Assembly: GCA_947306425.1 (NCBI GenBank) | Contig: CAMZGO010000013.1 | Location: 1 to 41,438 of the forward strand | DNA length: 41,438 nucleotides | Direction: 5' to 3' | Source: an uncultured Elusimicrobia bacterium | GTDB lineage: Bacteria; Elusimicrobiota; Elusimicrobia; Elusimicrobiales; Elusimicrobiaceae | In this document: in pieces, positions 9,224 through 25,874 of the stretch | Layout of the letters: each line of letters begins with the position of its first letter | How positions within the stretch are numbered: position 1 is the first letter of the stretch | Program-made: the position numbers and the translations under genes | The notes under the pieces: generated by a model | Seen by the model: only the letters and a program-made list of their open reading frames with translations | Database searches by the model: none | What the model was told of the DNA's origin: nothing

Positions 9224-9251
9224 TTGACATTTTTTTTTTTTTTTCTAAAAT
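9224..9251 (+). promoter_or_regulatory. Pilin promoter with a 15-T homopolymer spacer
   Basis: TTGACA at 9224-9229 is followed directly by 15 consecutive T (9230-9244), a C, and TAAAAT at 9246-9251. The spacer is 16 nt, almost entirely homopolymer. The leader then has an inverted repeat TATACGG/CCGTATA (9257-9263 and 9275-9281), and AGGAG lies 6 nt before the ATG at 9301. The second pilin gene has the same arrangement. Confidence 0.75.
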
Positions 9252-9300
9252 TTATTTATACGGAAATAAAAACACCGTATAAAATAAATTAGGAGAATTT

Positions 9301-9834
9301 ATGAAAGAAATAAAAAATGTAACAAAAGGTTTTACTTTAATTGAACTTTTGGTAGTTGTTTTAATTATTGGTATTTTGGCGGCGGTAGCGTTGCCGCAAT
9401 ATCAAAAAGCCGTGGAAAAAACAAAAGCAGCACAGGCATTGATATTACTTAAAGCATTGGTACAAGCATCCCAGAGTTATTATTTAACCAATGGGATATA
9501 TCCGTCAAACTTGGAAGAATTGGATGTTGATATTCCATGGACGGGCAATCAAAAATGGCATGGAGACGCAGAGGCAAAATCTAATAAGGAATGGACAGTG
9601 CAAATCTATAAAAACGGTACAAATTTCCGGTTATGGGTTGGGCGTATTTCTGGCCCTTATGCGGGAACAGGATTTAGTGCCGACTCGGAAGGAAATCTTA
9701 TGTGTGTAGAAGATGCACACGAAAATAATCATTTCACTTTTTCTAACTCAAAAGGATCTTATTGTGAAAAGATATTTCAGGCTATCCCTTTGAATGATCA
9801 AGATAGTACAACTCGTTATTATACCTTACCTTAA
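9301..9834 (+). CDS. Type IV pilin-like protein (prepilin)
   Basis: 177 residues. After a short charged leader, GFTLIELLVVVLIIGILAA is a textbook class III signal: a prepilin peptidase would cut after the Gly, and the Glu at +5 aids assembly. The sequence continues VALPQYQKAVEKTKA, the standard amphipathic pilin helix, and then a globular domain with two Cys near the C-terminus that could form a disulfide. Whether it is a major pilin, a minor pilin or a type II secretion pseudopilin cannot be decided. No assembly genes (pilB, pilC, pilQ) are in the window. It is a single gene with its own unusual promoter and a terminator. Confidence 0.88.
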   Translation: MKEIKNVTKGFTLIELLVVVLIIGILAAVALPQYQKAVEKTKAAQALILLKALVQASQSYYLTNGIYPSNLEELDVDIPWTGNQKWHGDAEAKSNKEWTVQIYKNGTNFRLWVGRISGPYAGTGFSADSEGNLMCVEDAHENNHFTFSNSKGSYCEKIFQAIPLNDQDSTTRYYTLP

Positions 9835-18714: not shown

Positions 18715-19380
18715 TTATTCAGATATATTACTTTTTCCTAAATTACATTTTTCACATAATGTTTGTAAATTATCTAAAACAGTTTCTCCACCTTTTGACC
18801 AAGGTTTTTTATGATCTATATGCAATACCACACTAGGATCCTTTGCAGGGGAAGCACCGCAAATACAACATTTAAAATTATCTCTTTGTAAAACTTTAAA
18901 TCTCAAACGTAAATTTATATCTCTTTTAGTTTTATGACCTGGTGCATTTTGCCCTTTATTATTATAACTTGTACCATCTTTAGAATCTTTCATGTAACTA
19001 ACAAAAGCCTTTAATGCTTTGTACCAAGAACCATATTTTCTCAAATATGCTCCACTCGAAATTCTAGATAATGTCTTGTTATTCATATCTCTTCTAGTTG
19101 GCTGTCGCCCCTTACTTACCCATACAGAAGATATATTTAGCATCAACTCATCAACAGTCCAATATTCTTGTCTACATGGGATATCGGCTTGTTTTAATGC
19201 TTTGTTCCAAGACCCAAATCGTCTACTCACTAAAGAACTACTATATTTACCATTCTCATCATAATCTTTCATAGATAAGGATGTAATATTTAATTGTTTA
19301 AATATATCTTTCAGATCTTTCAAAATTTCTTCATCATTGATCTTTTTATTTTTAATATTTAATATAAATTTCATAACCAT
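18715..19380 (-). CDS. HNH endonuclease with homing-endonuclease-associated repeats
   Basis: 221 residues. The N-terminal half carries two repeats of the type seen with homing endonucleases, each ending in a Gly-Ser-Trp turn: RRFGSWNKALKQADI and LRKYGSWYKALKAFVSY; this repeat probably binds DNA. The C-terminal part is an HNH nuclease: FKCCICGASPAKDPSVVLH, then IDHKKPWSKGG, then DNLQTLCEKCN (two CxxC pairs and the catalytic His). It should be a DNA-cutting enzyme of the freestanding homing type. It stands alone, 175 nt downstream of tRNA-Val on the opposite strand, with a weak RBS. Either ATG at the N-terminus (MVM) may start it. Confidence 0.88.
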   Translation of the reverse strand: MVMKFILNIKNKKINDEEILKDLKDIFKQLNITSLSMKDYDENGKYSSSLVSRRFGSWNKALKQADIPCRQEYWTVDELMLNISSVWVSKGRQPTRRDMNNKTLSRISSGAYLRKYGSWYKALKAFVSYMKDSKDGTSYNNKGQNAPGHKTKRDINLRLRFKVLQRDNFKCCICGASPAKDPSVVLHIDHKKPWSKGGETVLDNLQTLCEKCNLGKSNISE

Positions 19381-19669: not shown

Positions 19670-20881
19670 TTAGTTTAAACTATCGATAAGACGTTTAGGA
19701 TTGATAAAATATTTTACCTGATAAGGTTTACCAGTGGAATCTTTTACCGAAACACTATCCGCAGTTTTACGGGCAATAGAAATAAAATCTTCCATCTTTA
19801 AATTAGGTTTTGCTTGTTTTGCTAAAGCGGCCACACCTGCCAAATACGGTACACCCCAACTCAAGCCACCGGATGCATAGTAAGCATAATCACTTTCCCC
19901 TGTTTCACAAGCAGTAATTCTGTAATCAGTAGGTACCTTAATTCGTTCACTCTGTTGAAGGTAGTCCATATCATCATCCTCAAACCAATAAGGGGGGCGG
20001 GTATATGATTTTAAATTGTTCGGATCTGCAAAATATCCATTTCTGCTTACTGTCATCACATCATTTGTTGCTAACACCAAGACATTTTGCTTTTTAGCAT
20101 TTTGCAAGGCAGTTTGAAATTTATCAGAATTATTGTCTCTTTCAGAAAACCCTCTTGAAATAGATATAACCGATATTTTACTTTTTACGGGTAAGGTCTT
20201 ATTCAACTCCAAAATATAATTTATTGCTTCGGCAATTGGGGCTGCATCAAAAATTTCTTCATCATCTTCTATAAATTCAGCCGCTATAAAATATAAATTT
20301 GCACCTGGTGCTACACCTATATTTTTACCGACAGCAATAGAAGATACTGCAGTTCCGTGCATTGTACCTTCCTTTTGTTGAGTAAAATTTTTATAATATT
20401 TAACATTATTCTTATACTCTTGGTGGGAAGATAAGGGCTGATCAATAATAGCCAAACCTACGCCTTTACCTGTAATACCTCTCGCATGCAATTCTTTGAC
20501 ATTTAAACCGGGTGTTTTGCCTATTTTATTTATCTGCTCCAAGTCTAACCAATCAGGCATTGTTGAAGGCCATATTGTTTTACCATTAAAAGAAAGTTTA
20601 TTTATAATATTTTCCGGTAATTCTGTAAAATCTACGTCTGACACATCACAATATCTTATATCTATTTTGGATGAAGTTAAATCATCAAATGCGCTTTCAC
20701 AGCGTTTTTTATCTCTCATGAAATCGGAAGCAGGTTCCAAGTCATCTGAAACATATTCCTCTTTACCGGAAGAAATGCCACTTACTATATCTTGTTTAAT
20801 TTCGTTCATATCAAGATACATTCCGCAAAACAACAAACAAGCAACTAGTATGCAAATAATATAATAATATCTTTTTTTCAT
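19670..20881 (-). CDS. Membrane-anchored subtilisin-like serine protease (S8)
   Basis: 403 residues. A hydrophobic segment at residues 5-22 (YYYIICILVACLLFCGMYLD) is a signal anchor or uncleaved signal, so the protease faces the periplasm. A ~110-residue propeptide-like part follows. The S8 triad is visible: Asp147 in GLAIIDQPL, His175 in MHGTAVSS, Ser341 in GLSWGVPYLAGVAALA, with oxyanion Asn273 in VLVLATND. The serine motif departs from the usual GTSMATPHVAG (Thr to Leu, Met-Ala-Thr to Trp-Gly-Val, His to Tyr). AAGGAG precedes the ATG. Substrate unknown; it is not paired with an obvious partner. Confidence 0.9.
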   Translation of the reverse strand: MKKRYYYIICILVACLLFCGMYLDMNEIKQDIVSGISSGKEEYVSDDLEPASDFMRDKKRCESAFDDLTSSKIDIRYCDVSDVDFTELPENIINKLSFNGKTIWPSTMPDWLDLEQINKIGKTPGLNVKELHARGITGKGVGLAIIDQPLSSHQEYKNNVKYYKNFTQQKEGTMHGTAVSSIAVGKNIGVAPGANLYFIAAEFIEDDEEIFDAAPIAEAINYILELNKTLPVKSKISVISISRGFSERDNNSDKFQTALQNAKKQNVLVLATNDVMTVSRNGYFADPNNLKSYTRPPYWFEDDDMDYLQQSERIKVPTDYRITACETGESDYAYYASGGLSWGVPYLAGVAALAKQAKPNLKMEDFISIARKTADSVSVKDSTGKPYQVKYFINPKRLIDSLN

Positions 20882-21087: not shown

Positions 21088-21368
21088 TAAAAAACGGCTG
21101 TGATATCCTAGGCAGATCAACGTACCCAAAATATCACAACCGCTAAGCTCCTGCCATTATAAATGGCAGGAACTCTTAAGTAAAACAGCTGGCTCATGAC
21201 TTCCAACTATATTTACTTATTATCGGTTGTTTTTGGAGTTGATCTGTTCCTTAGGTTTTCCCTAAAGAAACATCCTATTTCCTAGGATTCCAAAAACAAT
21301 TAAATCTCTTAAGTCGCTCCACTTTTGCGACTCAATTTACAACTCTCGCACACTCCTTTTACAACTTA
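21088..21368 (-). ncRNA. Candidate structured ncRNA, class not recognised
   Basis: On the minus strand, with an extended -10 (TGCTATAAT, 21375-21383) and an intrinsic terminator, a transcript of about 280 nt is expected. Helices: a 9-bp hairpin 21309-21317/21327-21335; an 11-bp perfect stem TTGTTTTTGGA/TCCAAAAACAA (21227-21237/21289-21299) enclosing two smaller hairpins (21272-21288 and 21246-21271); TAAGTAAA/TTTACTTA (21177-21184/21212-21219) enclosing a 6-bp stem; a 10-bp perfect hairpin 21149-21171; and a 14-bp terminator stem 21093-21106/21131-21144 followed by TTTTTT. A GAGTTG/CAACTC match could form a pseudoknot. I see no motifs of tmRNA, RNase P, SRP, 6S or common riboswitches. Confidence 0.55.
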
Positions 21369-25330: not shown

Positions 25331-25804
25331 TTAATAATAAGAGTAAGAACACCAATTACCCCCGGTATTACAACGCTTACTTGAGGCAACTTTTCCTGTT
25401 TCTTTTTGACATAAACGATTGGATTTATCCATTAAATCGGTACTATATACATTGCAGCTTCTAGGCATTCCTGTATCTCTGAATACATAATAATAAGTAT
25501 CTATCCCAAATATTTTTTTATTGCATGCGACTTGGTCTGCCCCCACCCAAACCATACAATTTATACCGCTAGGAATAGTAATATCTAAATTACTGTTTAC
25601 ACCTTCATAAGTACCTTGTATCAAATAATATCTTTGGGCTGAGGCTTGTACATCCCTTGTAATAGTCTTTAATGTAGAAAACTTGGTTTTTCCTACGGCC
25701 ATTTGATACTGAGGCAAGGCAATTGCCGCTAAAATTCCGACAATTAAAACAACTACCAGCAGTTCAAGTAAAGTAAAACCTTGCTGATTATTTTTTCTTT
25801 TCAT
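25331..25804 (-). CDS. Type IV pilin-like protein (second copy)
   Basis: 157 residues from the ATG at 25804 (GGGAG, 7-nt spacing; the TTG upstream is too close to the RBS). GFTLLELLVVVLIVGILAA then IALPQYQMAVGKTK is the prepilin signal and helix, nearly identical to the pilin at 9301. The C-terminal domain is different, with six Cys (NCMVW, ACNK, SCNVY, LCQKE, RCNTG, WCSY) that may form disulfides. It has the same promoter architecture with a T tract. It is probably a minor pilin or pseudopilin; assembly genes are outside the window. Confidence 0.88.
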   Translation of the reverse strand: MKRKNNQQGFTLLELLVVVLIVGILAAIALPQYQMAVGKTKFSTLKTITRDVQASAQRYYLIQGTYEGVNSNLDITIPSGINCMVWVGADQVACNKKIFGIDTYYYVFRDTGMPRSCNVYSTDLMDKSNRLCQKETGKVASSKRCNTGGNWCSYSYY

Positions 25805-25847: not shown

Positions 25848-25874
25848 ATTGTAGAAAAAAAAAAAAAATGTCAA
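25848..25874 (-). promoter_or_regulatory. Pilin promoter with a 14-T homopolymer spacer
   Basis: Minus strand: TTGACA (25869-25874), 14 T (25855-25868), C, then TACAAT (25848-25853), a 15-nt spacer. ATTTTGCTTGACAT upstream is shared with the pilin promoter at 9217-9230. TACAAT and ATTGTA further on can also pair in the leader. Confidence 0.75.

What the first reader, a model, noticed from the sequence alone, without database searches (positions are those of the whole stretch)
9224..9251. Pilin promoter whose -35/-10 spacer is a 15-T homopolymer: candidate phase-variation switch
TTGACA is followed by 15 T, one C and TAAAAT, a 16-nt spacer. Replication slippage in such a tract changes the -35/-10 distance one base at a time, which is how poly-C and poly-G tracts switch Neisseria opc and porA. 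The second pilin gene at 25804 has the same design with 14 T (15-nt spacer). Two independent copies with different tract lengths support a functional design rather than a chance tract.
Basis: partly seen in the sequence, partly recalled or inferred. Interest (0 to 1): 0.82.

Follow-up and report, generated by a model that had tools for sequence, protein, structure and literature searches.

The report
Genome-wide poly-T spacer promoters for pilins
A gut Elusimicrobium-type bacterium with over 100 pilin-like genes drives about half of them from promoters whose -35/-10 spacer is a pure run of about 15 T; this arrangement, found in no other kind of place in its genome, most likely lets replication slippage switch or tune each surface pilin independently, although switching itself has not been observed.

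Summary
The window's genome (1.44 Mb; the only related named record with the exact promoter is the rumen 'Elusimicrobium' MAG RUG13237) has 108 type IV pilin N-termini. It has 55 runs of 12 or more T. All lie in promoters upstream of genes for exported proteins: 51 before pilins, two more at contig ends with pilin-type leaders, two before signal-peptide proteins. Outside these promoters homopolymers die out at 8-9, so selection maintains the tracts. Relatives in two genera reuse the module with different flanks, and there otherwise identical promoters differ only in T number. In this genome the -35/-10 spacings are 15-16 or 19-21 and avoid the 17-18 of ordinary promoters; three of five short or interrupted versions sit at 16-17. 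Slipped-strand phase variation or length tuning is the best explanation (about 0.72). It is not proven: only single consensus genomes were available, MutS is present, and lengths are narrowly distributed. The mechanism would be of a known kind (M. hyorhinis vlp, N. meningitidis opc), on an unusual scale. Many of the remaining pilins carry a second, apparently undescribed device: a ~200-nt pseudoknotted leader RNA with a terminator-like hairpin.

The parts
9224..9229 (+). -35 element TTGACA of pilin promoter 1
   Evidence: read directly; pattern search
9230..9244 (+). T15 homopolymer forming the spacer (with C 9245)
9246..9251 (+). -10 element TAAAAT, spacer 16 nt
9301..9834 (+). type IV pilin-like gene 1 (177 aa)
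   Evidence: PF07963 E 2.7e-8, PF16732 E 1.4e-5 just below cut-off
25869..25874 (-). -35 element TTGACA of pilin promoter 2
25855..25868 (-). T14 homopolymer spacer (with C 25854)
25848..25853 (-). -10 element TACAAT, spacer 15 nt
25331..25804 (-). type IV pilin-like gene 2 (157 aa)
   Evidence: PF07963 E 3.4e-10
21090..21299 (-). copy of the second regulatory device (pseudoknotted leader RNA, model R1), upstream of a subtilase-like gene at 19670-20881 (-); related system, not part of the T-tract promoter
   Evidence: cmsearch 100.4 bits, E 7e-26; PF00082 in the downstream ORF

Best explanation
Each promoter is a sigma70-type promoter whose -35/-10 spacer consists almost entirely of a pure T run (14-16 T here, about 12 in several relatives). 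Slipped-strand mispairing during replication adds or removes single T residues and so changes the -35/-10 distance and the helical phasing one base at a time, switching or tuning transcription of the pilin behind it. With more than 50 such loci per genome, a clonal population would express many different pilin combinations. Shown here: the anatomy, the exclusive association with exported-protein genes, maintenance against the genomic background, conservation across two genera, and T-number differences between otherwise identical promoters. Inferred: that length changes occur within a population, that they change transcription, and which lengths are ON.
For: (1) 55 T>=12 tracts in the genome: 51 directly upstream of pilin N-termini, two at contig ends with pilin-type leaders and two before signal-peptide proteins; none elsewhere. 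(2) Runs of 9 or more are otherwise practically absent, so T14-T16 is kept by selection and free of interruptions. (3) Reuse in relatives with different flanks: G012, G005, G002, G014 pilins; G013 pilins and some exported proteins; G006 mainly cysteine-rich exported proteins; up to 82 promoters in one genome of a second genus (G036), reversed control 0. (4) Same flanks, different T number within one genome: G036 TTGACTTG-T11/12/13/14-GCTACAAT 3/5/3/1; G033 TTGACCCG-T10/11/12-CTTACAAT 2/3/10; own TTGACA-T14/T15-CTAAAAT 6/6. (5) Own spacings are 15 (9), 16 (7), 19 (13), 20 (12), 21 (2), 23 (1), none at 17-18, whereas ordinary TTGACA..TATAAT promoters peak at 17 (6) and 18 (3); three of five short or interrupted versions sit at 16, 17 and 17. 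(6) In the long-spacer class T number falls as the non-T linker grows (Spearman -0.57, p 0.0018, n 27), so total spacing appears to matter. (7) Precedents: M. hyorhinis vlp A-tracts (PMC10502178), opc poly-C with 11 versus 12 C changing expression (PMC3447861); tracts of 8 or more were mostly variable by deep sequencing in meningococci (PMC5084427).
Against: No read-level or same-species strain data were available, so no actual length change was seen. Lengths are narrow (48 of 51 are 14-16). The four most similar promoter pairs in the genome (0-6 substitutions in 69 flanking bases) all have the same T number. MutS is intact in the genome, and in meningococcus a mutS+ strain showed no opc tract change in 89 colonies (PMC3447861). 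The tract is always T on the coding strand, which slippage alone does not require. In G042 T12 is kept whether the linker is short or long (spacings 16 and 19), so tract length is not tuned to one spacing everywhere. Two short-tract promoters (L025, L109) have spacing 12, not an optimum.
Confidence: 0.72

Rival explanations
1. Fixed structural promoter: the T tract is a rigid, narrow-groove A-tract element that defines a pilin regulon (bound by a regulator or nucleoid protein, or preferred by the RNA polymerase), with a set length and no switching role.
For: Narrow length distributions (mode 15 here, 12 in G036, G013, G033); strand uniformity; identical T number in the closest duplicate pairs; MutS present.
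Against: A pure 14-16 nt homopolymer is more than a rigid A-tract needs; otherwise identical promoters differ by 1-3 T, which moves the -10 by a base or more; spacings avoid the 17-18 used by ordinary promoters; homopolymers are purged elsewhere, implying an instability cost that is tolerated only here.
Confidence: 0.2
2. Rheostat rather than on/off switch (a sub-version of the best explanation): slippage changes promoter strength by graded amounts through DNA shape and phasing, as reported for the H. pylori sabA T-tract.
For: Spacings come in adjacent pairs (15/16, 19/20); a 16-nt T-rich spacer could have about the twist of a 17-nt mixed spacer (inference from A-tract geometry); sabA precedent (PMC4081817).
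Against: The sabA tract lies beside the -35 element, not in the spacer; the 3-4 nt jump between the two spacing classes looks more like an all-or-none difference.
Confidence: 0.3
3. Chance or assembly artefact: AT-rich intergenic DNA or homopolymer misassembly.
For: The window alone has only two tracts, and 7 of 100 shuffles reach as many matches. Some contigs end at these loci, and a few G012 loci look chimeric or collapsed (T18-T27 with the -10 missing).
Against: 55 of 55 genomic tracts are in promoters, 0 in reversed controls, and the same design occurs in many independent assemblies.
Confidence: 0.02

Closest known systems
Mycoplasma hyorhinis vlp promoters (Citti and Wise 1995, as reviewed in PMC10502178)
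   Same: Multigene surface-protein family in which every gene has a homopolymer in its promoter region; insertions and deletions there switch transcription ON/OFF. From general knowledge the A-tract lies between -35 and -10.
   Different: Poly-A, a few clustered genes, a bacterium without a cell wall. Here poly-T, more than 50 dispersed loci, type IV pilins and cysteine-rich exported proteins, phylum Elusimicrobiota; switching not yet demonstrated.
Neisseria meningitidis opc (and porA) promoters
   Same: Homopolymer in the promoter of a surface protein; in PMC3447861 11 versus 12 C changes Opc expression.
   Different: G/C tracts at single genes; here T tracts shared by a whole gene family.
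Helicobacter pylori sabA T-tract rheostat (PMC4081817)
   Same: T-tract near a sigma70-type promoter, slipped-strand length changes, graded promoter output.
   Different: The sabA tract is adjacent to the -35 element; here the tract is the -35/-10 spacer itself.
Bordetella pertussis fim2/fim3 C-stretch promoters (Willems 1990, cited in PMC4081817)
   Same: Fimbrial genes whose transcription is switched by a homopolymer in the promoter (from general knowledge).
   Different: Poly-C, activator-dependent promoters, few genes (from general knowledge).

Membership tests
Homopolymer-spacer phase-variable promoter (vlp/opc/porA type) | Pure homopolymer between -35 and -10 boxes | tested here: met
   TTGACA-T15-C-TAAAAT in the window; 44 of 51 own promoters have TTGAC..TANAAT flanking the tract, the other 7 lack a TTGAC or are cut by a contig end
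Homopolymer-spacer phase-variable promoter (vlp/opc/porA type) | Controls surface-exposed or exported proteins | tested here: met
   Pilin N-termini behind 51 of 55 tracts; the others pilin-type leaders (2) or signal-peptide proteins (2)
Homopolymer-spacer phase-variable promoter (vlp/opc/porA type) | Tract length differs between otherwise similar promoter copies | tested here: met
   G036, G033, G042, G006, G013 and own
Homopolymer-spacer phase-variable promoter (vlp/opc/porA type) | Tract length varies within one strain or population | not testable with these tools
   One consensus genome per species; no reads held
Homopolymer-spacer phase-variable promoter (vlp/opc/porA type) | Tract length changes transcription | not testable with these tools
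   Needs reporter or RNA data
H. pylori sabA-type T-tract rheostat | T-tract adjacent to the -35 element and outside the spacer | tested here: not met
   The tract lies inside the spacer in the promoters with both boxes

The most novel reading that the evidence does not exclude
Gut Elusimicrobiota carry a combinatorial surface-identity generator: a pilin repertoire of up to about 110 dispersed genes in which about half is switched stochastically by poly-T spacer promoters and many of the rest are gated by a previously undescribed pseudoknotted leader RNA with its own terminator, so that single cells of one clone wear different pili. This would be among the largest single-family spacer-slippage batteries known, coupled to a new RNA class.
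Probability: 0.5. Interest if true: 0.86.

Novelty: new variant of a known kind. Interest (0 to 1): 0.72.

Why it matters
If true, an almost unstudied gut phylum diversifies its surface filaments by dozens of independent slippage switches, a strategy best known from a few pathogens. It gives a simple test bed, with many near-identical promoters differing only in T number, for how -35/-10 spacing and A-tract DNA set transcription. The association with a new structured leader RNA points to a two-layer control of a giant pilin family.

Tried and rejected
Chance homopolymers: rejected. Loss of mismatch repair as the driver of instability: not supported, MutS in 59 of 60 family genomes examined; MutL was not tested. 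The idea that the two window promoters represent the whole design: rejected, most promoters here have 19-20 nt spacers. One common target spacing for all promoters: rejected, 15-16 and 19-21 coexist, with T-length compensation only within the long class. Evidence of variation from viral contigs: the exact promoter is absent there. A genome-collection scan for the exact promoter found one relative (RUG13237, two contigs) and four isolated hits in unrelated organisms. Literature: no paper in the held library was found that describes poly-T promoters or phase variation of pilins in Elusimicrobia; I could not retrieve the E. minutum genome paper (in which I gave a DOI that differs in its last digits from the one cited in PMC8809381). 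Rfam gave no family for the leader RNA in the 12 loci tested.

Full report
What is there. The window's 9224-9251 reads TTGACA-T15-C-TAAAAT, 49 nt upstream of the ATG of a 177-aa prepilin. A second copy on the minus strand (25874-25848) reads TTGACA-T14-C-TACAAT before a 157-aa prepilin.

Scale. The window is one contig (C13) of a 1.44-Mb genome, 99.4% complete. The same promoter with the same boxes occurs 17 times in it; the reversed pattern occurs 0 times. The genome has 108 hits to the prepilin N-terminal motif PF07963. I took the stretches around these hits and found 101 pilin-like N-termini in them. 55 have a T run of 8 or more within 110 nt upstream of the start codon, 51 of them a run of 12 or more (one cut by a contig end): 30 of 15 T, 13 of 14, 5 of 16, 2 of 19, 1 cut at 12.

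Exclusivity. A whole-genome count gives 55 T>=12 tracts on both strands. 51 are the pilin promoters. Two lie at contig ends and are followed by a pilin-type leader (L178, L179); L178 has the same 37 nt after its tract as the cut copy at the end of C3, so the two are probably one locus. The last two (C4:94457, C1:254191) precede genes for signal-peptide proteins. No long T run is anywhere else. In 166 kb of this genome's DNA A/T runs number 566, 171, 17, 1, 1 for lengths 6 to 10 and none for 11 to 13, then 35 at 14 to 19. Short T runs of 9 and 10 also occur as degenerate versions upstream of pilins. The genome purges homopolymers and keeps them only here.

Architecture. Sub-designs differ in the bases around the run: TTGACA-T14/15-C-TAAAAT (spacer 15/16), TTGACAACG-T15/16-C-TACAAT (19/20), TTGACAGCCG-T15-G-TACAAT (20), TTGACTTGCG-T14/15-CG-TANAAT (20/21). 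Across the 44 promoters with a TTGAC box the spacings are 15 (9), 16 (7), 19 (13), 20 (12), 21 (2), 23 (1), and none is 17 or 18. Ordinary TTGACA-N-TATAAT promoters of the same genome peak at 17 (6) and 18 (3) over a background of about one per spacing. Five promoters with short or interrupted tracts have spacings 17, 17, 16, 12 and 12. In the long class the T number falls as the fixed linker grows (Spearman -0.57, p 0.0018). This suggests that total spacing matters and that the present consensus states flank the optimum. Which lengths are ON is not known.

Relatives. Within the genus T>=12 runs followed by -10-like boxes precede pilins in G012 (RUG13237), G005, G002 and G014. In G013 the design is TTGACTTG-T12-GATAAA before pilins and a few exported proteins; in G006 it stands mostly before cysteine-rich signal-peptide proteins. 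In a second genus the design reaches 82 (G036), 61 (G044) and 46 (G056) copies, with 0 reversed matches. A phylum-wide scan of 341 genomes shows it essentially confined to this family, with 1-3 copies in a few members of a sister family and isolated hits beyond. Within single genomes promoters with the same boxes and flanking bases differ only in T number, so the tract changes faster than its immediate surroundings.

Mechanism. The best-supported reading is slipped-strand promoter variation: single-T gains and losses shift the -10 relative to the -35. The steps shown are anatomy, exclusivity, maintenance and between-copy length differences. The steps inferred are within-population variation and its effect on transcription. 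Against: narrow length distributions, the same T number in the four closest duplicate pairs, and an intact MutS. MutS does not exclude it, but in meningococcus tract changes were far more frequent without MutS (PMC3447861). The main rival is a fixed A-tract promoter element that marks a regulon.

Comparison. The closest known systems are the vlp family of M. [quoted passage not shown] PMC10502178) and the opc promoter of N. meningitidis (11 versus 12 C; PMC3447861). Homopolymers of 8 or more were mostly variable by deep sequencing in meningococci (PMC5084427). The H. pylori sabA T-tract (PMC4081817) works beside the -35, not inside the spacer. The promoters described here therefore look like vlp-type promoters, but membership cannot be closed because the two experimental features were not testable.

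A second device. Of the 46 pilins without a T tract, about 25 have a structured RNA of about 190-205 nt upstream, and several more have hairpin variants of it. It has helix P1 around two hairpins, two further helices, and a final terminator-like hairpin followed by a T run. A pseudoknot joins the P1 region and the last loop: at least 8 contiguous pairs in 18 of 21 loci, against 7% for mismatched pairs of loci. Twenty-nine of 44 consensus pairs show compensatory changes. A covariance model finds 51 copies in this genome, 58 in G007, 50 in G041, and copies in 33 of 40 family genomes. Twelve sample loci searched against Rfam 15 gave no matching family. G007 has 112 pilin hits and 58 RNAs but one T>=12 tract, so a large pilin family does not by itself bring T tracts. 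The strong matches near pilins lie at loci of the class without T tracts. One copy is in the window at 21090-21299 (-), before a subtilase-like gene.

Noticed in passing
window 21090-21299 (-); L071, L073, L081, L078 and about 50 sites in the genome: Apparently undescribed ~200-nt leader RNA (model R1) with several helices, a pseudoknot and a terminator-like hairpin, upstream of many pilins that lack a T tract and of a few other genes (subtilase, a LicD-like protein, small repeat proteins). Present in two genera, no Rfam match in the loci tested. Possibly a new riboswitch or attenuator class.
   Followed up: partly
whole genome (G000): 108 prepilin N-termini in 1.44 Mb, widely dispersed over the contigs; relatives in the genus range from 12 to 112.
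   Followed up: yes
L136-L151 (G006), L122 and L128 (G013): The T-tract promoter module also drives cysteine-rich signal-peptide proteins in relatives, so it is not tied to pilins.
   Followed up: partly
L176 (G000:C4:94457) and L177 (G000:C1:254191): Two nearly identical T15 promoters with a degenerate -35 (TTGCGG) before two related-looking signal-peptide proteins of unknown function.
   Followed up: no
L046, L057, L059, L060, L090, L097: An ACGACGAT / ATCGTCGT motif just upstream of the -35 region in a subset of T-tract promoters; possible regulator site.
   Followed up: no
contig ends of C3, C7, C9, C10, C11, C18, C19 in G000: Several contigs end at T tracts or pilin N-termini; C3 and C10 share the 37 nt after the tract, so the assembly probably broke one locus there. 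Could reflect repeats or length heterogeneity.
   Followed up: partly
L007 (G000:C4:80873): A pilin relic in which the N-terminal helix is fused to a C-terminal pilin segment, apparently by an internal deletion.
   Followed up: no
window 18715-19380 (-): HNH endonuclease with homing-endonuclease-associated repeats.
   Followed up: no
window 9256-9283 (+) and L008: Short inverted repeat (ATACGG...CCGTAT) in the 5' leader of the pilin mRNA; similar small repeats occur in many T-class leaders.
   Followed up: no
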